Shown: piece by piece, positions 33,051-43,174 of the stretch
How positions within the stretch are numbered: the first letter of the stretch is position 1
How the letters are laid out: every line of letters begins with the position of its first letter
NCBI RefSeq assembly: GCF_002197845.1
Contig: NZ_NIDE01000001.1
Coordinates: 1,426,001 to 1,490,000, forward strand
Source: Fimbriiglobus ruber
Lineage (GTDB): Bacteria; Planctomycetota; Planctomycetia; Gemmatales; Gemmataceae
Length of the DNA stretch: 64,000 bases
Direction of reading: 5' to 3'
The notes under the pieces: generated by a model
Seen by the model: only the letters and a program-made list of their open reading frames with translations
What the model was told of the DNA's origin: nothing
The model's database searches: none
Program-made: the position numbers and the translations under genes

Positions 33051-33199
33051 GAATGAGTCAGTTGGCGGGCGTCGATTCGTGACTTCGACAGTGTGCCGTC
33101 GAACGGGTGAAGTGTCCAGTGGCGGCGACAATACAATTCTTTTTACCGCCGACCGGCGGCAAAAGTCTTCTTGGGCGATCCGGCGGTGTGGGGGCGAGT

Positions 33200-34428
33200 A
33201 TGACGGATTGGGACGCGGTCGTCGTCGGTGCCGGGGCGGCGGGCCTCATGACCGCGATCCACGCCGCCGAGCGCGGGCGCCGCGTATTGCTGTTGGAGAA
33301 GGGGCGGAAGCCGGGCGTCAAGATTTTGATGTCCGGCGGGACGCGGTGCAACATCACCCACGACTGCGACAACCGCGGCATCATCGAGGCGTTCGGCCCG
33401 AACGGGAAATTCCTCCACTCCGCGCTCGCCGCGTTCGGCGTCCGCGACGCGATCGCTTTTTTTGAAGGGGAAGGCGTCGCGACGAAGGTGGAAGACACGG
33501 GCAAGATCTTTCCCGTCAGCGACCGCGCGCTGGACGTGTTGAACGCCCTCTTGCGGCGCCTGGAACGCAGTGGCGCCACGCTCGCCACGAGCGAGCCGGT
33601 GCGCGAAATCGTCGCCAGGCCGGAAGGCGGCTTTCACTTAACGACGGCGGTGCGGGAGGTCACGACGCCGCACGTCGTCGTGACCACGGGCGGCCGGTCG
33701 TACCCGGCTGCGGCACGACGGGCGACGGCTACACCTTCGCCACCCAGTTCGGCCACACGATCGTACCGACCCGGCCCGCGCTGGTGCCACTGACGCTGCA
33801 AGCCGAATGGGTGGCCGAGTTGCGCGGGATCACGCTGCCGGACGTGACATTGCGGGTGGTCGAGGAAAACAAGCCGCTGGCCGTGCGGCGGGGGTCGGTG
33901 TTGTTCGCCCACTTCGGCCTGACCGGTCCCGCGCCGCTCGACGTGAGCCGGGCCGTGAGTGGTCACGCCGCGCCCGGGCGGCTGAGCCTGGAGATCGACT
34001 TCCTGCCCGGCGTCCCGGAGCCGCAGTACGACGAATTCCTCCGGACCGAGACGGCCGCCTCGGGGAAGAAACAACTTGCGGTCGTGCTTTCCGAAAAGCT
34101 ACCGCGCCGGGTCTGCGACCAACTGCTGACGCTGGTCGAACTCCCGGTCGACCGCAAGGCCGCCGCGCTGAGCAAGCCGGACCGGCAGAAGCTGGTCGCC
34201 GCGACGAAACGGCTACGGGTGCCCCTACGCGGGACGCTGGGGTTCGAGAAGGCCGAGGTCACCGCGGGTGGCGTGAATCTGGACGAAGTCGATTCGCGGA
34301 CGATGCAAAGTAAGCGCACGCCCGGGTTGTATTTCGCCGGCGAAGTCCTCGATCTGGACGGCTGGATCGGCGGATACAACTTCCAGTCGGCGTGGAGTAC
34401 GGGATGGCTGGCGGGGCGAAACGTGTGA
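33200..34428 (+). CDS. BaiN/HI0933-like flavoprotein (frameshifted)
   Basis: This protein would have about 409 residues if intact. The N-terminal dinucleotide-binding motif is [20 protein letters not shown] and the family signature is [13 protein letters not shown]. Substrate and FAD contacts appear in [14 protein letters not shown] and TTGGRSYP. Near 33704-33708 one base is missing (expected tacccgggctgcgg, found tacccggctgcgg). The product reads correctly in frame 2 up to there and in frame 1 afterwards ([20 protein letters not shown] up to [20 protein letters not shown]). Members are oxidoreductases of unclear natural substrate; BaiN reduces bile-acid intermediates. Frameshift or sequencing error cannot be separated here. 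Confidence 0.85.
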
Positions 34429-34509: not shown

Positions 34510-35316
34510 TTACTTCGCCATCATCCGCTTCGACACCTCGTCGTGGACGCGGCCGTTGGTCGCGATCATCCCGAGTCGCTGGGCTTTTTCGCCGTGCCCG
34601 TAAACGATCGGGGCTCCCGACGTTTCTGTGACCCGCCCGCCCGCCTCCTCGACGAGAACGTGGCCCGCACAGACGTCCCAGTCGTGGAAGTTCGGGTAGT
34701 TGTTGACGTACACGTCGACGTCGCCCCGCGCGACCATCGCGAGCTTGATCCCGGCCGAGAAGGTTTCGACCACCCGGGCCGGGTTTAACCCCGTCACGAT
34801 CCGCGACGGCTTGCCCGGCTTCAAGTGGCTCACCACGACCACTAGTCCGTCCATCGTCGGCCGCTCGGTCACCCGGCACCGGGTCGGCTCCCCTGCCCCG
34901 CTCACCACCCAGCACCCGCCGCCAGCGGTCGCATACGTGACGCGATCGAGGACTGGTTCCAGGACCACGCCGAGGACCGCCTGGCCGCCGACGGCGAAGC
35001 CGATCATTACGGAAAACTCGCCGTTCTTCATGGCGAACCCGCGCGACCCGTCGATCGGGTCGACGATCCAGACGCGATCGGTGCCTTTGGGTCCCTGGTC
35101 GAGCGTGGGCGTCCGCTCTTCGGCTACCAGGCCGTCTTCGGGAAACGCGGCCCGGAGGTATTTCAGAATGATTTCTTGGGATTCGCGGTCGACGTGTGTA
35201 CTGAACGTGGCCGGGGCGTTCGGGATGGGCACGAAGCTCTCGTACTCGGCTTTCACGTACCGGCCGGCCAGCTCTGCGGCGGCGAATGCTTCCTTCAACT
35301 CGCGTTCGTATGGCAT
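34510..35316 (-). CDS. inositol-monophosphatase-family phosphatase, CysQ-like
   Basis: This 268-residue protein has the metal-binding motifs of the IMPase/bisphosphate-nucleotidase family: the EE of VAEERTPTLD, DPIDGSRGFA (DPxDGT-type) and HDWDVCAGHVLVEEAGGRVT. The set resembles 3'(2'),5'-bisphosphate nucleotidase (CysQ, clearing PAP) as much as inositol phosphatase; sequence alone does not decide. AGGA lies about 6 nt before ATG 35316, supporting that start over an in-frame ATG 30 nt further out. Confidence 0.87.
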   Translation of the reverse strand: MPYERELKEAFAAAELAGRYVKAEYESFVPIPNAPATFSTHVDRESQEIILKYLRAAFPEDGLVAEERTPTLDQGPKGTDRVWIVDPIDGSRGFAMKNGEFSVMIGFAVGGQAVLGVVLEPVLDRVTYATAGGGCWVVSGAGEPTRCRVTERPTMDGLVVVVSHLKPGKPSRIVTGLNPARVVETFSAGIKLAMVARGDVDVYVNNYPNFHDWDVCAGHVLVEEAGGRVTETSGAPIVYGHGEKAQRLGMIATNGRVHDEVSKRMMAK

Positions 35317-35400
35317 CGCGTCCTCATCAATGACCCGGGCCGCCAATCCCGGCGGCCCGCACCCGTCTCGTCAGTATAGCAACCACCGACGCGGCGACGT

Positions 35401-37528
35401 TCAACTCGCCGCGGTGGTCAGGGATTGCTTGAAGTTCATCGCCCGGTACGATTCGCTCCCGGCCAGCAACTCGTCGTGGCTGCCGGCGGCGATGATCTTG
35501 CCCTTCTGCAACACGTACACGCGGTCCGCGGCCTTGATCGTCGCCGTCCGCCGGGCCAGGAATAATAGAGTCCGGGTCGCCCGAACTCGCGCGATCGTGT
35601 CTTCGATGAGGACGACGCTGTCCACGTCGAGCGGCTCGGCCGGTTCCTCGATGATGATGAGGGACGGGTCGCGGAGCAGGGCGCGGGCCAGCGCGATCCG
35701 GAACCGCTGCCCGGCCGCAACGACACGCCGCCGTCGCCGATGACTGTCTCGTACCCGTACGGCATTCGTTGCACGAACTGGTGAACGTGGGCCAGTTTGG
35801 CGGCCTCGACGATCCGCGGCAGGGAAAACCCCGGCTCGCCGCAGCCGATGTTGTTCGCGACCGTGTCGGTGAACGTCAGCGACTGCTCCAAAACGAGCGC
35901 GACCTGGGTGCGGACGGATTCGGACGTCACCCAGCGGGTGTTCTTTCCGTCGATCCGAACTTCGCCCGCGGTCGGCTCCAGAAAGCGGGTAATCAACAGC
36001 GCCAGCGACCGGGCTTCGTCCGCGTCGCCGAACACCACCGCGCCGCGCGTCAAGGCGGGCAGTACGAGGTTCACGTCTTCGAGAATCATGCGCCCCGTCC
36101 CCGCCTCGCGGAGACTGACGCCGACGAATTCGAGCTTCCGGGTCATGGGCGGCAGGAACTCGGCGTCGATCCCCTGCCCCGCTTCGCCCCGCCGGCCGAG
36201 GAACTCGATCACGTCGGCCGCCGCCTCGCGGGCGCGGGTGATGCGGACGCGGGCGGCGATCCACCGGTTCACGCCGTACACCAGCGCGCCGAGGGCAGCC
36301 GCCTTGACGATCAACCCCGCCACACTCATTTCCCCGCCCATGACCACCCGTCCGGATAGGTACAGCATGGTCACGCCGACGAGGCCGACGATCGCGTACA
36401 GCGTCGGCCGTGAAATGGCGTCGCCCCGTTGGCGGCGCCACTCCGATTTCGAGAGATCCGTCAGGTGCCGTTCCAGCCGGGTCTGGCTGAACCGGTCCAT
36501 CAAATATGCTTTCACGAGCTGCACCTGCGATAGCGACTCGCGCATCATCCCGAGCCGGGCTTCGGTCCGCCGCTCCGCGCGGCGCGCGTCCCGGCGGAAC
36601 CAGACCGCCGCCTGCCCGGCGACCAGCCAGACGGCAGCAGCCAACGCGAGCAAGCAGACGGTCAGCCAGAGGTGGGTCAGCAGCAGGATGGCCAACAACA
36701 GGACGGTCAACACCGGCCCGCGGATTCCGGCGGTCAAGTACGCCTGCAAGCCGTCGCGGACTTGTTCGACCCGCCGGGTGATCAGTTCGCCCGCCTCGTC
36801 GCGGGCTTCGGGCCGAACGGCGACCGCGGCCAGCCGATACCCGTGCATGTGAATCGCGCGCCGGAGCCGGGTCGCGGCGTCGACCGTCGCGACGGCCGCG
36901 CCGTGGGCGGCCGTGTTCAGGAACAACCCGCGGACCAGCGCGAGTACGAACGCGATCGCGAACAGCCCGGTGAGGTACGAGTTGTTCGCCGCGCCGTATT
37001 CGGCCCCGGCCCACGCCCAGGTGTTCCAGCCGCCAGCCAGCCGAGGAGCCCGCCGGTCCACCGGCCCCGCTCCCGCACGACCAGACTCAACACCCCGAGA
37101 CAATGCGACGTCGGAACCGCCGCCGAACCCGACGCGAGCGGCAGGTATGCTTCCGCGGCCTCGTGGCCGACCCGGGTCTCCAAGGTCGAGAACGTGACGG
37201 CTTCCCACCGCCGCTCCCAGACCACGACGTCGGGCGTGCCGGGCGGGACGACTGCGGGTTGAAGTTTGTCCAGGGCCGCCACGACGCCGGGATGTGTCCC
37301 GAGTGAGGTCGCGTATTCGTCTTGAAACGCTTGCTGCCTGGCGGGCGCGAGTGAGGCGTACGCCGGGACGCGGCCCTGCGTGGTGAGCAGGTCGGCGAAC
37401 AAATAGAGCAGGGGAAATAAGAGCGCGAGACAAACGGACGAGAGTACGGAGCTAATCATCGCGCCCCACCGCGAGGCGGGGGAAAAATTCAGGTAACTCC
37501 GGACCGCCTGAAATGGGTTCGTGTCCAC
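35401..37528 (-). CDS. ABC exporter (membrane and ATPase domains), frameshifted, degenerate ATPase motifs
   Basis: This would be 709 residues if two missing bases are restored (near 37030 and 35718, expected runs tggctggcgggctgg and ttg-ncggccgggcag). The N-terminal half has several membrane segments (AMISSVLSSVCLALLFPLLY, YLTGLFAIAFVLALVRGLFL, VLTVLLLAILLLTHLWLTVC). The ATPase half is recognisable (VLEQSLTFTDTVANNIGCGE as Q-loop, SAGQRFRIALARALLRDP as signature, LIIIEEPAEPLD as Walker B). The Walker A lysine is absent (GDADEARSLAL), the Walker B Asp is Glu, and the H-loop His is Arg (ARRTATIKAAD). This looks like a non-hydrolytic ATPase domain or a decaying gene. Confidence 0.75.
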
Positions 37529-37699: not shown

Positions 37700-38950
37700 T
37701 CAGGCCAGGTCCCGGTCTTCGAACAGGAGAAGTCCCACGATCAGCGCAATTAATGTGTAGATGACCGCGTACCCGAGGACGGTCATGACGTACCCGACGA
37801 ACGGCCACAGGTCGAGCGGGGCGTCGCGGATGATGGCCGGCCCCATGTTGAAGAATTCCAGGGCCGGCAGCAGCGTGTCGAAGAGATTCCCCAGGAACCC
37901 GACCAGCCCGAGCGCGGCGTTGTCCGGATTCTTCAGGCGCATTTCGTCCGCGACACGGACCACGACGGGCGCAAGGTGGCCGAGGAAGAACACCACCAAG
38001 CAGATCACCAGATTCACGACGAAGGTCATCCGGGTCGCCAGAGCGGTCGCTATGGCGACGAGGATCATCACCTGGCCGAACCCCAGGCCGATTCCGAACG
38101 TGTGGGCGAAAATTTCACCAAACCACATCCCGGCCCCTTCCGCCATCGTCCTGGCCGGGCCGGGCGGCATGACCTTGCCGATGAGGGGCACGATCGCCTC
38201 TTTCGCCTGGACGGGCATCGAGTCGAACGCCCGGTCCTTGTTGATGGGGTCGAACTCGGGCATGACCAACAGGGCCGCGTTCAGGTTGAGTCCCAGGATC
38301 AGGGACATCCCCCCGCACGCCATCAGGATGCCCAGGAATTTGCCCGCGAGGAACGACCGGCGGTTGATCGGCTTGCTCATCACCGTGATCGCCGTCCGCC
38401 CTTCGATCTCTTCGCTGATCGAAATACTCGACGCGAGGACGCCGAACAGAGCGGCCCCCAGCATGACGATGTCGAACCCGATCTGCTTCATCATCTTGAA
38501 GTCGTCGCCGAACGTGAAGTACGGCAGGATGACCGCGAACCAGGTGAGCAGGATGCCGAATATGGTAATTAACCAGAACATCGGCTGCCGCCACCCCTCG
38601 CGGTAAGCAGCCAGTGCCACAGCCCCGGTCTTTGGCAGGATCAGCGTGAGTACCGCCGGGGCAATGAGGAATAGGTCGATCAGCAGCTGGGCGTGCAAAA
38701 TGGCCCCGTAAATCCGGCCGTACAGCTGAAGGCTGGACGAATCGCCTTTGTAGCCGACGAATCCGGCGAACAACACGGCGATGCCGATTAGCGCGCCGAG
38801 GGCGTAACCTACGCCGGCTGGCGTTTTAGCCGCCTTGTCGAACCCGCGGGGGTCGATGGCCCGGAGCCACGGGAGGGCGGCGAGAACTTGGGCGACGGCC
38901 AGGATCAACCCGCCGAGCAACACGTTCGGGTTGGACAGCCAAGAAAACAT
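37700..38950 (-). CDS. ABC-2-like transporter permease
   Basis: This 416-residue membrane protein has about eight to nine helices (VLLGGLILAVAQVLAALPWL; ALGALIGIAVLFAGFVGY; LLIDLFLIAPAVLTLIL; WLITIFGILLTWFAVILPYF; then ILMACGGMSLILGLNLNAAL; FVVNLVICLVVFFLGHL; VMTVLGYAVIYTLIALIV). The middle block (SSISISEEIEGRTAITVMSK, NRRSFLAGKFLG) is typical of ABC-2 subunits such as NosY-like permeases. No ATPase for it is visible next door. It lies 171 nt upstream of the ABC exporter but is separate. Confidence 0.8.
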   Translation of the reverse strand: MFSWLSNPNVLLGGLILAVAQVLAALPWLRAIDPRGFDKAAKTPAGVGYALGALIGIAVLFAGFVGYKGDSSSLQLYGRIYGAILHAQLLIDLFLIAPAVLTLILPKTGAVALAAYREGWRQPMFWLITIFGILLTWFAVILPYFTFGDDFKMMKQIGFDIVMLGAALFGVLASSISISEEIEGRTAITVMSKPINRRSFLAGKFLGILMACGGMSLILGLNLNAALLVMPEFDPINKDRAFDSMPVQAKEAIVPLIGKVMPPGPARTMAEGAGMWFGEIFAHTFGIGLGFGQVMILVAIATALATRMTFVVNLVICLVVFFLGHLAPVVVRVADEMRLKNPDNAALGLVGFLGNLFDTLLPALEFFNMGPAIIRDAPLDLWPFVGYVMTVLGYAVIYTLIALIVGLLLFEDRDLA

Positions 38951-39136: not shown

Positions 39137-42100
39137 TCAGCCGACGAACACCCCGCCGGTGAACCCGGGCAGTGCGTCCAGGCTGAAATCGGTGGCCGGC
39201 GACGACGGATTCGACAGCATCGCCGCACCCGTGTACCCCGTCACCGTCCCGCTCGACCCCGACCCGGCCACCAGCCCCGCCTGATCCGTCCCGTCCAAGT
39301 CCTTGACCGCCACCGGCACCCCGTCCCGCCCGCTCGGATCACCCGCAAAGAAGTCGGCCACCTCGGCTCCCGCTACCGCACTATCGTCCAGGCTCGAGAA
39401 GTTCCCGGCGACCGACAGCAACACTTGCGGGTTGACCACCCGGACCCGCGGGCCGCCGCCCGGACCGGCCCCGAACACGAGGTCCGTGTACCCGCTCCCG
39501 GTCACGTCCCCGGCCGTCACGTACACCCCGTTCCGCAGCGAACTCTCGAACGCGAAGAAGTCTGGCATCAGTTCGGTGGGCGTACCGGACGGGACGGTCG
39601 CCCCGTTATAGATGGCCACCCGCGGGCCGCCCCCGTCTCCGGCCGACACGATCAGGTCGGGCGTCCCGTCCCCGTTCACGTCCCCGACGGCGGCACGGGC
39701 CCCGCCCCGGAACGACGGGTCGTTGATCCCGAAGAACCGGACCACCTGGGTCACGATTCCTTTGGCGAGGGCGGCCCCGTCGTACACGGCCACGACCGGC
39801 CCGCCGCCCTGGTCGGGGGTGACGATGATGTCCGGGATGCCGTCCCCGTTCAGGTCCCCGGCGGTCACGTACAGGCCGCCGGTGAACGTCGACTCGAACG
39901 GGCTGAACGTGGCCACGACCTGGTGGGTGGTGCCGTCGACCACGACGACCTGGTTGGCCACTCCGGGCCCGGTGGCGGCGATCAGGTCGGGGGTGCCGGC
40001 CCCGGTCAAATCCGCGACGGCGACCCGGACCCCGGCGGTGAACGACGACCCGAACGGGGTAGCCGTGTACGCGACCGACTGGTCCGGGTTGTACACGGTC
40101 ACCGTGCCCGTCCCGCCGGTGCCTGAACCGGCCGCGAATTGAGGGATTCCGTCGAGCGCGGGTATGGGAGGAAAGCTAAAAGTGGGAGGGAAACCGGTTG
40201 TCAGGGAACCGACCAAAACTTGATTTGCAACCGGAGTATAAAAAGAGTTTAAGGCATTGTTAATCACATACGTTCTGGTTACGTCGATGGCACTGTTAGC
40301 CCGACTGATCGTTCCGACAACTCCAGTCGTTCCGTTCCCGAATGCCACCCAAGTCGGCGTTACGCTCGGAATACTTGGAATGACCAGAAAATTACCTGTG
40401 ACAAGCGAAACGACACTTCCTCCTCCCTCGTCAAATGGTTGTTCCGCAGTGCCCACAAGGCTGTTCGACGCGCTCAGCACTCCGGACACGCCACTCGTCC
40501 CGTTCGCGAACGTCGCGGCCCCTGCATTTGCGGTCGAACCGTTGGCCCAATTCAGGCTGACGATCACATAGTTGCCACTACTGATTTCATTTACACGTGA
40601 CCCGACCTGGTCACCGGACTGTGATCCAACAAGACTGTTGGACGGACTTACAAGTCCGCTGACCCCGGCCACCCCGTTCCCGAACGTACTCGCCCCCGCC
40701 GCCGCGGCTCCGCCGTTGGCCCACATGGGGCTGCCGACCACATAATTGCCGTTGCCGAGCGCGGTAATCGTTTTGCCGACTTGATCACCAGTGTTTTCCC
40801 CGACCAGGCTGTTCCCACTGCTGACCACCCCTGCCACGCCGGTCGTCCCGTTCCCGAACGTCGCCGCCCCTGCCGACGAAGCCGACCCGTTCGACCAAGA
40901 CGGGCTGGAAACAACGTAGTTGCCGTTACTCAAGGCGGTCGAGCCCGGCACTCCGCTGCCGACATGGTCACCGGTAGTACTACCAACAAGGCTATTCATC
41001 GAGTTCACGACCCCAATGACTCCGGTCGTCCCGTTCCCGAATGTCACCGCTCCGGCCGACGAAGCCGACCCGTTGGCCCAGTCCGGACTGGCGACCACAT
41101 AATTGCCGTTCGTCAGTGCTGTGACGCCTCCGCCAACACTATCACCCGGCGCATCACCTACTAGGCTGTCGGCCGAACTCACCACCCCAACGACCCCCGA
41201 CGCCGCAGTCCCGAACGTAACAGCACCGGTCTGATTCGCCCAGGAAGGACTATCGACCACGTAATTCCCGTTAGTGAGAGGAGTAATGCCGCCCGAACCG
41301 ATGCCGTCACCTTTCGCGCTGCCGATCAAACTGTTGGTTGCATCAATCGTGCCCGTGGGAGCGGCCGTTGCGTTGGCGAACGTTACGGCCCCAGCCGTCG
41401 TGGACGACCCGTTCGCCCAAAGCGGGCTGACTACCAAATAGTTGCCGTTACCGAGGGCCGTTATCCCGCCCGAACCGACTTTGTCATCCGCTTGCGACCC
41501 GACGAGACTATTTGTCGTATTCACATCACCGGATACCCCCGTGGCTCCGTTCCCGAACGTCACCGCACCCGCGGCGGAAGCGCCTCCATTCGTCCAGTCG
41601 GGACTCCTCACGACGTAATCGCCATTATTTAAAACAGTAATGTCCGGCGAAAACGAATAAGAAGCTTCGTAAACTGTTTGCCCTGAACCAAACGTAAATG
41701 GGAGAGCAGTGAACGTGAGTTCGCCCCCAACGTAGTCATTGGTTGTGGAACCGACGAGACTATTCGATGGGCTGATTTCTCCGACGGTGCCGTCGGTACC
41801 GTTCCCGAACGTTACCGCACCGGCGCCGTCCGTGCCCCCATTCGACCAAAGTGGGCTCCAAACCAGGTAGTTATCATTTGGGAGAATGGTAACCCCACCG
41901 AACCCGGCAGAATCACCCGCACGTTGACCGACCAGGCTGTTAGCCGATCCGACCATTCCGGCCACCCCAGATGTTCCGCTTCCGAACGTCACCGCACCAT
42001 AACCGCCCGACCAATTCGGCATGGTAACCAAATAATTCCCGTTGCTGAGTGCGGTGATCGGTTTGGTGGTCGAGCTGGCAAAAGTGGTTTGCATCACCCC

Positions 42101-43174
42101 CGGGCTGACCGGGGGTGGGGTGAAGTTCGCTGAATCGCCGAACCCGGATCCGATCAGACTGTTGGCGGCACTCATGACCCCGGTTAGCCCGGTTGTCCCG
42201 TTCTCGAAGATCACTGCTCCGTCACTGGCCGTGTCGTCACTGAGGCTGACTACGACAAAATTCCCGGTCGCCAGTTCGGTCACCCCGCCGGACGACGAAC
42301 CGGTATCGATCAGACTGTTGTTCTGACCGACCGTGCCGGTTACGCCGGTCGCCCCGTTCCCAAACGTGACGGCTCCCTTTTGGTCAGACCATTTGCCGCT
42401 GGTGACCACGTAATTGCCGTTCTTGAGTGCCGTCACGCCATTCAGCAAGTCCGAAGTACGCGGGTCGATGGCCGCCCCCACGTTGTCGTACGGCGAACTC
42501 CCGACGAGACTATTCGCCGCACTGATCTCACCACTGACTCCCGCCGTTCCGTTCCCGAATGTAACGGCCCCTGCTTGCGGAATCGACCCACTCGACCAGA
42601 GCGGGCTATCGACAACATAGTTACCGTTCGCCAAAAGGATGACACCCTGACTACCGATGTAGTCGTCGTATTGGCTCCCCACCAAACTGTTGGTCGCATC
42701 GACTTGGCCGCTGAGTCCCGTCGTCCCGTTCTCGAATGTCACCGCTCCTCGGTTCGCCCACCAGCCAGAGCTATAAATGAGGAAATTGCCATTACTGAGT
42801 GGGATCACACCGGCTCTAGTTCCTGTGAGACTGAATCCAATTTGATCATGCTCGTGCGATCCGGTCAGAGTGCTGATTAGAGCACCGGTTGTGCCGTTGA
42901 ACAGGTACACGGCTCCCGCGTCCGGGCCCCCGGCGTTGTCGTCGGGCGCGGTAATCACCACGTTGCCGGTACTCAGGGGAACGATCTGGGCCCCGAACCC
43001 GTCGCCAATGGACGCGTGAGGGTCCACGAACGCCGAGAACGCGGCCGCCGGCACCACTCGATCTTCCAGCCATTCCAGCGAGCCGAGTAGAGTTCGTTGC
43101 CGTTTGCGACCGCGAACGGCGTCGGGGGAACCCAGACGGCGGGATAACGGCGCTAGGGACATGTGTTCGCTCAT
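39137..43174 (-). CDS. giant secreted repeat protein 1 with C-terminal FG-GAP-like module
   Basis: This protein has 1345 residues. The N-terminal planctomycete signature LEWLEDRVVPAAAFSAFVDP probably marks export. Residues about 50-1000 are about 14 degenerate repeats of 55-65 residues. Each has a 'NSLVGSxxGDxVG', then 'NGNYVVxSPxWxNG', then 'GAVTFGNGTTG' segment, an FG-GAP-derived pattern in which the Ca-binding 'DLNGDG' is replaced by NGNY. The last ~335 residues (from PQFAVGSGTGGTGTVTVYNP) keep true FG-GAP strands (FTGGLYVTAGDLNGDGIPDI, FRGGARAAVGDVNGDGTPDL) and end exactly at PGFTGGVFVG. The function is unknown; a surface or extracellular-matrix role is likely. ATG 43174 is chosen; an in-frame ATG lies 12 nt later. 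Confidence 0.85.
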   Translation of the reverse strand: MSEHMSLAPLSRRLGSPDAVRGRKRQRTLLGSLEWLEDRVVPAAAFSAFVDPHASIGDGFGAQIVPLSTGNVVITAPDDNAGGPDAGAVYLFNGTTGALISTLTGSHEHDQIGFSLTGTRAGVIPLSNGNFLIYSSGWWANRGAVTFENGTTGLSGQVDATNSLVGSQYDDYIGSQGVILLANGNYVVDSPLWSSGSIPQAGAVTFGNGTAGVSGEISAANSLVGSSPYDNVGAAIDPRTSDLLNGVTALKNGNYVVTSGKWSDQKGAVTFGNGATGVTGTVGQNNSLIDTGSSSGGVTELATGNFVVVSLSDDTASDGAVIFENGTTGLTGVMSAANSLIGSGFGDSANFTPPPVSPGVMQTTFASSTTKPITALSNGNYLVTMPNWSGGYGAVTFGSGTSGVAGMVGSANSLVGQRAGDSAGFGGVTILPNDNYLVWSPLWSNGGTDGAGAVTFGNGTDGTVGEISPSNSLVGSTTNDYVGGELTFTALPFTFGSGQTVYEASYSFSPDITVLNNGDYVVRSPDWTNGGASAAGAVTFGNGATGVSGDVNTTNSLVGSQADDKVGSGGITALGNGNYLVVSPLWANGSSTTAGAVTFANATAAPTGTIDATNSLIGSAKGDGIGSGGITPLTNGNYVVDSPSWANQTGAVTFGTAASGVVGVVSSADSLVGDAPGDSVGGGVTALTNGNYVVASPDWANGSASSAGAVTFGNGTTGVIGVVNSMNSLVGSTTGDHVGSGVPGSTALSNGNYVVSSPSWSNGSASSAGAATFGNGTTGVAGVVSSGNSLVGENTGDQVGKTITALGNGNYVVGSPMWANGGAAAAGASTFGNGVAGVSGLVSPSNSLVGSQSGDQVGSRVNEISSGNYVIVSLNWANGSTANAGAATFANGTSGVSGVLSASNSLVGTAEQPFDEGGGSVVSLVTGNFLVIPSIPSVTPTWVAFGNGTTGVVGTISRANSAIDVTRTYVINNALNSFYTPVANQVLVGSLTTGFPPTFSFPPIPALDGIPQFAAGSGTGGTGTVTVYNPDQSVAYTATPFGSSFTAGVRVAVADLTGAGTPDLIAATGPGVANQVVVVDGTTHQVVATFSPFESTFTGGLYVTAGDLNGDGIPDIIVTPDQGGGPVVAVYDGAALAKGIVTQVVRFFGINDPSFRGGARAAVGDVNGDGTPDLIVSAGDGGGPRVAIYNGATVPSGTPTELMPDFFAFESSLRNGVYVTAGDVTGSGYTDLVFGAGPGGGPRVRVVNPQVLLSVAGNFSSLDDSAVAGAEVADFFAGDPSGRDGVPVAVKDLDGTDQAGLVAGSGSSGTVTGYTGAAMLSNPSSPATDFSLDALPGFTGGVFVG
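39140..40150. repeat. C-terminal module repeat, copy in giant gene 1
   Basis: This segment encodes the ~335-residue C-terminal module. It is nearly identical at DNA level to 43254-44265, including a 95-bp exact match (39894-39988 with 44008-44102). Confidence 0.85.

What the first reader, a model, noticed from the sequence alone, without database searches (positions are those of the whole stretch)
35401..37528. ABC exporter with a catalytically degenerate ATPase domain
After restoring the two frameshifts, the ATPase half still lacks the Walker A lysine (GDADEARSLAL), has Glu in place of the Walker B Asp (LIIIEEP) and Arg in place of the H-loop His (ARRTATIKAAD). Q-loop and signature are kept. 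It could be the non-hydrolytic half of a heterodimeric exporter, a regulatory protein, or a gene being lost. No intact partner ATPase lies next to it.
Basis: partly seen in the sequence, partly recalled or inferred. Interest (0 to 1): 0.5.

Follow-up and report, generated by a model that had tools for sequence, protein, structure and literature searches.

The report
Ancient ABC exporter without ATPase motifs
A membrane transporter whose fuel-burning half has lost the residues normally used to hold and split ATP turns out not to be a dying gene but a member of an old protein family, kept under strong selection in many relatives of this bacterium, so it probably works without burning ATP itself.

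Summary
The window gene (minus strand, 35401-37528, two frame changes) belongs to a family of MsbA/ABCB-like half-exporters with degenerate ATP-handling motifs. None of 99 relatives keeps GxxGxGK[ST]; 19 of 19 next-best exporters fetched as controls do. A-loop, Q-loop, signature, D-loop, Walker B Asp and H-loop are altered too, so 'Q-loop and signature are kept' is wrong. With motif columns left out, all 100 degenerate rows fall apart from 28 canonical rows by a fully supported branch. They come from six family codes. NBD dN/dS is 0.013-0.254 in 15 scorable pairs. 'Gene being lost' is thus refuted for the family; the window's frame changes may be sequencing errors, since a flavoprotein gene nearby is split too. 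The gene often follows an ABC-2 permease lacking a linked ATPase (46 of 68 genomes with room; 21 of 29 fetched loci outside the order). Best explanation: an ATPase-inactive pseudo-exporter whose NBD became a structural part. Partner, substrate and driving force are unknown.

The parts
35401..37528 (-). degenerate (ATPase-inactive) MsbA/ABCB-like half-exporter gene, in three reading frames
   Evidence: the 59 own-group orthologue loci show open frames of 557-992 aa without internal stops in the match, one of them, L044, truncated before Walker B
37030..37528 (-). first piece: N terminus, TM1 and most of the long TM1-TM2 loop
   Evidence: TM segments by simple hydropathy only
35721..37034 (-). 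second piece: TM2 to the middle of the nucleotide-binding domain
35404..35727 (-). third piece: signature to C terminus
36000..36032 (-). degenerate Walker A (FGDADEARSLA)
35880..35894 (-). degenerate Q-loop (VLEQS, Gln position is Glu)
35736..35756 (-). conserved segment GYETVIG, retained (X-loop, coupling to the TMD; role recalled)
35674..35718 (-). degenerate signature and following helix (AAGQRFRIALARALL)
35641..35661 (-). altered Walker B (LIIIEEP, Asp to Glu; catalytic Glu kept)
35536..35556 (-). altered H-loop (ARRTATI, His to Arg)
37700..38950 (-). ABC-2 type permease without a linked ATPase, frequent upstream gene
   Evidence: PF12679 and PF12730; upstream in 46 of 68 genomes with room
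34510..35346 (-). CysQ/inositol-monophosphatase-like phosphatase, frequent downstream gene
   Evidence: PF00459 E 2.4e-47; TIGR01331 below its cut-off; downstream in 38 of 76 genomes with room

Best explanation
The gene encodes a member of an old, mainly vertically inherited family of ABC half-exporters that have lost ATP hydrolysis, and very probably ordinary ATP binding, but keep the whole fold. Shown: the nucleotide-handling motifs are degenerate across the family, the degenerate rows form one side of a fully supported branch, the NBD is strongly conserved, and the gene is often linked to an ABC-2 permease and a CysQ/IMPase-like phosphatase. Inferred: the protein is a homodimer in which the NBD, with its coupling segment kept, serves as a structural clamp on the membrane domain. 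It acts as a passive or regulated membrane component (scaffold, channel-like path or lipid/precursor handler) alongside the permease in envelope building.
For: 0 of 99 relatives keep GxxGxGK[ST]; 19 of 19 next-best exporters fetched as controls keep it. In the 60 rows of the window's own group, the window included: A-loop position Glu/Asp in 58 (Tyr in 25 of 28 canonical rows); last Walker A Gly is Glu in 50; the Ser/Thr place is His or Arg in 50; Walker B Asp is Glu in 59 of 59 scored; signature Ser in 12 (28 of 28 canonical). With the motif columns left out, 100 degenerate and 28 canonical rows are split by a branch of support 100. NBD dN/dS 0.013-0.254, below that of the TMD in 14 of 15 scorable degenerate pairs. 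Mean NBD conservation 0.693 in 59 rows, against 0.723 in 21 canonical rows; GYET.iG retained. Linkage.
Against: 39 of 60 own-group rows still have Lys at the Walker A Lys position, so weak or unusual nucleotide binding is not excluded. The second Walker B Glu is kept in most rows (59 of 60 own-group, 13 of 13 f4, 8 of 12 diverged f1). A lower dN/dS in the NBD than in the TMD is also seen in 5 of 5 canonical pairs, so it shows constraint, not a new role. The permease exists without this exporter beside it in 19 genomes examined, so the pair is not obligatory, and 22 of 68 genomes with room lack the permease upstream. The diverged f1 rows fall outside f1 plus f2 in the tree, on long branches, which is not simple vertical descent. 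No structure, expression or biochemical data exist. The window copy agrees with conserved columns less than most rows (66 of 74, second lowest of 59).
Confidence: 0.62

Rival explanations
1. It is the non-hydrolytic half of a heterodimer with an unlinked canonical exporter of the same genome.
For: Such heterodimers are well known (PMC7756269, passages). The window's genome has three other PF00664 exporters, all with a canonical Walker A (L002, L003, L004). One of them (L002) and a relative (L066) share a long TM1-TM2 loop of about 95-105 residues by hydropathy.
Against: In known cases the other composite site stays canonical (passages; recalled: the degenerate half then supplies a canonical signature). 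Here the signature, A-loop and D-loop are degenerate too. No canonical ABC gene is linked in 25 of 26 loci of 17 kb or more.
Confidence: 0.2
2. It is a nucleotide sensor: it binds ATP or another nucleotide in a changed pocket without hydrolysis and gates transport.
For: Walker A Lys kept in 39 of 60 own-group rows and the second Walker B Glu in most. Lys at Walker A and Arg/Lys at the H-loop occur together in 0 of 98 rows, as if one positive charge were kept in the pocket; counting Arg as Lys it is 1 of 98 (L041).
Against: The adenine-stacking aromatic, the P-loop glycines and the Ser/Thr are mostly gone. The charge swap rests on 1-4 independent pairs, not significant. The window's clade lost the Lys.
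Confidence: 0.13
3. The window copy is a decaying pseudogene.
For: Two frame changes in this copy. It is second lowest of 59 in agreement at conserved columns. One other copy, L044, is truncated.
Against: Its end branch is ordinary. 29 of 32 columns invariant in the other 59 rows agree, one of the three misses being the unread junction. A nearby flavoprotein gene is split too, which suggests sequencing indels. Purifying selection in relatives (not measurable on the window copy).
Confidence: 0.12

Closest known systems
MsbA / ABCB-type homodimeric ABC exporters (TIGR02203, PF00664 + PF00005)
   Same: Domain order, TMD and NBD homology (TIGR02203 238, 251 and 272 bits for three orthologues; MsbA structures matched at E about 6e-92, plant ABCB19 and animal ABCB proteins higher)
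   Different: Below the MsbA cut-off of 602 bits. ATP-handling motifs degenerate. TM1-TM2 gap of about 130-150 residues in eight of the nine own-group rows printed and 142 in the window, by hydropathy.
Heterodimeric or full-length exporters with one degenerate site (TAP1/2, TM287/288, ABCC1, CFTR; PMC7756269)
   Same: Degenerate NBD that stays under selection
   Different: There the other site stays canonical and the degenerate site still binds ATP (passages). Here all motifs of the half-exporter are changed and no partner is linked.
Pdr5 degenerate site 1
   Same: Walker A, Walker B, signature and H-loop of that site all degenerate (PMC7756269, passage)
   Different: There it is one of two sites in a full-length transporter whose other site hydrolyses ATP; here a half-exporter without a known partner.
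ABCG5/G8 degenerate site
   Same: Walker A change reported together with signature change (PMC7756269, passage)
   Different: There Lys to Arg in one site of a heterodimer. Here the P-loop glycines and Ser/Thr are mostly gone too.
ABC-2 type permeases (PF12679)
   Same: The upstream gene is one
   Different: No ABC ATPase was found beside it with my queries, also not in 11 loci outside the class.

Membership tests
ABC exporter fold (ABCB/MsbA-like half-transporter) | ABC_membrane TMD (PF00664) followed by ABC_tran NBD (PF00005) | tested here: met
   PF00664 above cut-off in the window; PF00005 above cut-off in three open-frame orthologues, below it in the two window pieces
ATP-hydrolysing ABC transporter | Walker A GxxGxGK[ST] | tested here: not met
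   0 of 99 relatives; met in 19 of 19 next-best exporters fetched
ATP-hydrolysing ABC transporter | A-loop aromatic, Walker B Asp, LSGGQ signature, Q-loop Gln, H-loop His | tested here: not met
   window has Glu, Glu, AAGQ (beside a frame break), Glu and Arg at these places
MsbA equivalog (TIGR02203) | score above 602 bits | tested here: not met
   238, 251 and 272 bits for three orthologues; the broken window copy was not scored
Heterodimeric exporter with one degenerate site | linked or co-inherited partner with canonical Walker motifs | tested here: inconclusive
   No linked partner in 25 of 26 loci of 17 kb or more; unlinked canonical exporters exist; co-inheritance not tested
Heterodimeric exporter with one degenerate site | degenerate half keeps a canonical signature for the partner's active site (recalled rule) | tested here: not met
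   signature Ser in 12 of 60 own-group rows
Pseudogene | relaxed selection | tested here: not met
   NBD dN/dS 0.013-0.254 in 15 scorable pairs of relatives; not measured on the window copy itself
Non-ATPase scaffold or gated path | no ATPase activity, partner complex | not testable with these tools
   needs biochemistry

The most novel reading that the evidence does not exclude
A whole family of ABC exporters has abandoned ATP yet kept its nucleotide-binding domain nearly as conserved as that of working exporters. It works with an ABC-2 permease that lacks a linked ATPase as a mixed ABC complex in the envelope of planctomycete-like bacteria, the empty ATP pocket being held shut by a substituted charge network in place of nucleotide.
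Probability: 0.22. Interest if true: 0.8.

Novelty: new variant of a known kind. Interest (0 to 1): 0.6.

Why it matters
Degenerate ABC sites are normally explained by a working partner site. A family in which the ATP-handling motifs of the half-transporter are gone, carried by rows from six family codes, with the NBD still strongly constrained, is a natural experiment on what an ABC exporter fold does without ATP. It makes that question testable. It also flags an unstudied gene cluster (ispA-dxs-nadK-permease-pseudo-exporter-phosphatase in its fullest form) that may belong to envelope or isoprenoid biology. I found no report of such a family in the held open-access library (searches; subscription papers are mostly absent, and the listed papers were not read beyond passages of one).

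Tried and rejected

Led nowhere: the single-protein scan of genome contigs gave two loci with ordinary Firmicutes exporters, kept as controls. An upstream open frame of 482-483 aa in two class loci is similar in size only, not homologous. A GC3 frame scan for further frameshifts in the window did not recover the known ones, so it was dropped. The Walker A Lys / H-loop Arg swap is not significant once relatedness is counted. Literature: searches returned no paper; some gave listings, of which I opened one paper (PMC7756269) for passages. One search, on a guessed organism name, gave a listing only and settled nothing.

Rows dropped and limits: of 130 rows, the two frames of the window's own locus L001 were replaced by the joined window protein, and a weak 434 aa frame of L034 (33.7 bits, no motif) was left out. 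Fragments under 430 aa (L069, L070, L071) were not counted. L194 and L044 are incomplete but kept. The label 'canonical' was given by the motif itself, so '28 of 28' would be circular; the independent figures are the 19 of 19 exporters fetched as next-best hits (a twentieth region, L241, held none) and the tree without the motif columns. Of the 28 canonical rows 24 come from genomes of the window's order and 4 from Firmicutes. Neither the controls nor the class loci are random samples: the class loci were taken from the best permease hits plus some family spread. One search examined the best hit of each of 19 genomes and 11 further hits; lower hits, where a strongly diverged copy could hide, were not examined. 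The pairs were chosen as close relatives; two share a row and several have high dS. One search covers only the window's family and the second family of its order, uses stop-to-stop frames and may miss genes.

Full report
What is there. The window lies at 1426001-1490000 of contig 1 of a 12.36 Mb genome in 20 contigs. From size and gene content I take it for a planctomycete of the Gemmata group (inference, not tested). Below I use the tool's codes: f1 is the window's family, f2 another family of its order, f3, f4, f6 and f7 other families of its class. On the minus strand at 35401-37528 lies one ABC exporter gene read in three frames. The TMD matches PF00664, and the two NBD pieces match PF00005 below its cut-off.

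Observation. Walker A Lys to Ala, Walker B Asp to Glu and H-loop His to Arg are confirmed. The Q-loop Gln is Glu, the signature reads AAGQ beside a frame break, and the A-loop position is Glu. So 'Q-loop and signature are kept' is not right.

Orthologues. In the family, 69 of 95 genomes match the middle piece at E <= 1e-30, 64 of them with one match. Of 99 degenerate-family relatives of at least 430 aa (59 f1, 12 strongly diverged f1, 7 f2, 6 f3, 13 f4, 1 f6, 1 f7), none has GxxGxGK[ST]. As controls I fetched 20 next-best exporter places from the same group of genomes; 19 gave an exporter and 19 of 19 have the motif. In 60 f1 rows, the window included: the last Walker A Gly is Glu in 50; the Lys is kept in 39 (lost in the window's own clade); the following Ser/Thr is His or Arg in 50; Walker B is Glu-Glu in 59 of 59 scored; the signature Ser remains in 12, the H-loop His in 27 and the Q-loop Gln in 35; the A-loop is Glu or Asp in 58. 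In f4, 3 of 13 rows have Gln in place of the Walker B Asp. One further copy, L044, is truncated before Walker B.

History. An IQ-TREE tree of 128 rows with the motif columns left out separates all 100 degenerate rows from 28 canonical ones by a branch of support 100. The groups f1 (support 68 only), f2 (84), f3 (100), f4 (99) and the diverged f1 rows (93) each need one change. This fits one ancient loss followed by mainly vertical descent. Against a simple picture: the diverged f1 rows fall outside f1 plus f2 on long branches, the single f6 and f7 rows are long branches too, the search was the quick one, and the root is not inferred. In eight class genomes and eleven genomes outside the class that have the permease without this exporter beside it, the best exporter hit of each genome and eleven further hits are canonical, 30 of 30; lower hits were not examined. 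The family is therefore widespread in the class but apparently not universal.

Selection. In 16 close degenerate pairs (one saturated), NBD dN/dS is 0.013-0.254 and lower than that of the TMD in 14 of 15; in 5 canonical pairs the NBD is lower as well, 5 of 5. So the degenerate NBD is constrained in the way of a working one. NBD conservation is nearly that of canonical exporters (0.693 in 59 rows against 0.723 in 21), and the GYET.iG segment, the X-loop that couples to the TMD in canonical exporters (recalled), is retained. A domain without function would not behave so.

The window copy. Its end branch is 0.29 (median 0.28) and it agrees with 29 of 32 columns invariant in the other 59 rows. Against this, it is second lowest of 59 in agreement at columns conserved at 95% or more (66 of 74). 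The flavoprotein at 33107-34428 is likewise split between two frames, with part of the HI0933 domain in each. Sequencing indels are the simplest explanation but are not proven.

Neighbourhood. Upstream lies an ABC-2 permease (37700-38950, PF12679), downstream a CysQ/inositol-monophosphatase-like gene (34510-35346; equivalog cut-offs not reached). In f1 and f2 genomes with room on the contig, the permease is directly upstream in 46 of 68, the phosphatase directly downstream in 38 of 76, nadK within about 4.5 kb upstream in 18 of 56 and dxs in 12 of 55. In the fullest loci the order is ispA-dxs-nadK-permease-exporter, in some followed by the phosphatase (L090, L097). In two loci exporter and phosphatase frames overlap by four bases. 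Outside the order, 21 of 29 class loci fetched have the exporter beside the permease. No ABC ATPase was found beside the permease in 11 loci outside the class with three canonical queries and the exporter profile, and 1 of 26 loci of 17 kb or more around the exporter holds a canonical ABC gene.

How it may work. Shown: motif loss, one side of a supported branch, strong constraint, linkage. Inferred: no ATP hydrolysis and little or no ATP binding; the NBD as a structural clamp; action with the permease. The heterodimer model is disfavoured because the signature is degenerate too, so that neither composite site would be canonical. The review of degenerate sites describes sites that still bind ATP beside a working site, Pdr5 being the case with four changed motifs in one site (PMC7756269, passages only). 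A possible charge swap (Walker A Lys against H-loop Arg/Lys, together in 0 of 98 rows) rests on 1-4 independent pairs and is not significant.

Known or new. The fold is that of MsbA/ABCB exporters. In seven literature searches I saw no report of a family-wide ATPase-inactive exporter of this kind; four of them returned nothing, the others were seen as listings, and the library lacks most subscription papers. I rate it a new variant of a known kind.

Noticed in passing
window 33107-34428 (+): HI0933-type flavoprotein gene split between two frames, part of the domain in each; suggests indel errors in this stretch.
   Followed up: partly
window 39137-43174 (-): 1345 aa protein with 13 DUF5650 repeat stretches and FG-GAP repeats.
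   Followed up: no
window 37700-38950 (-): ABC-2 permease with an invariant C-terminal LFExRD motif in 15 aligned sequences; a match at E <= 1e-10 in 288 of 297 class genomes searched; no linked ATPase seen.
   Followed up: partly
L073:5976-7538 and 9 other loci: Gene upstream of the permease in 10 loci of one cluster; the L073 member is an FtsH-ternary-system vWA protein (PF19997).
   Followed up: no
L044 (G001): Another copy of the degenerate exporter ends before Walker B.
   Followed up: no
L169, L170, L174-L180: Strongly diverged members (long branches) still directly downstream of the permease in the dxs-nadK cluster.
   Followed up: partly
degenerate family, Walker A and H-loop positions: Lys at Walker A and Arg/Lys at the H-loop exclude each other (0 of 98 rows), not significant after correction for relatedness.
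   Followed up: yes
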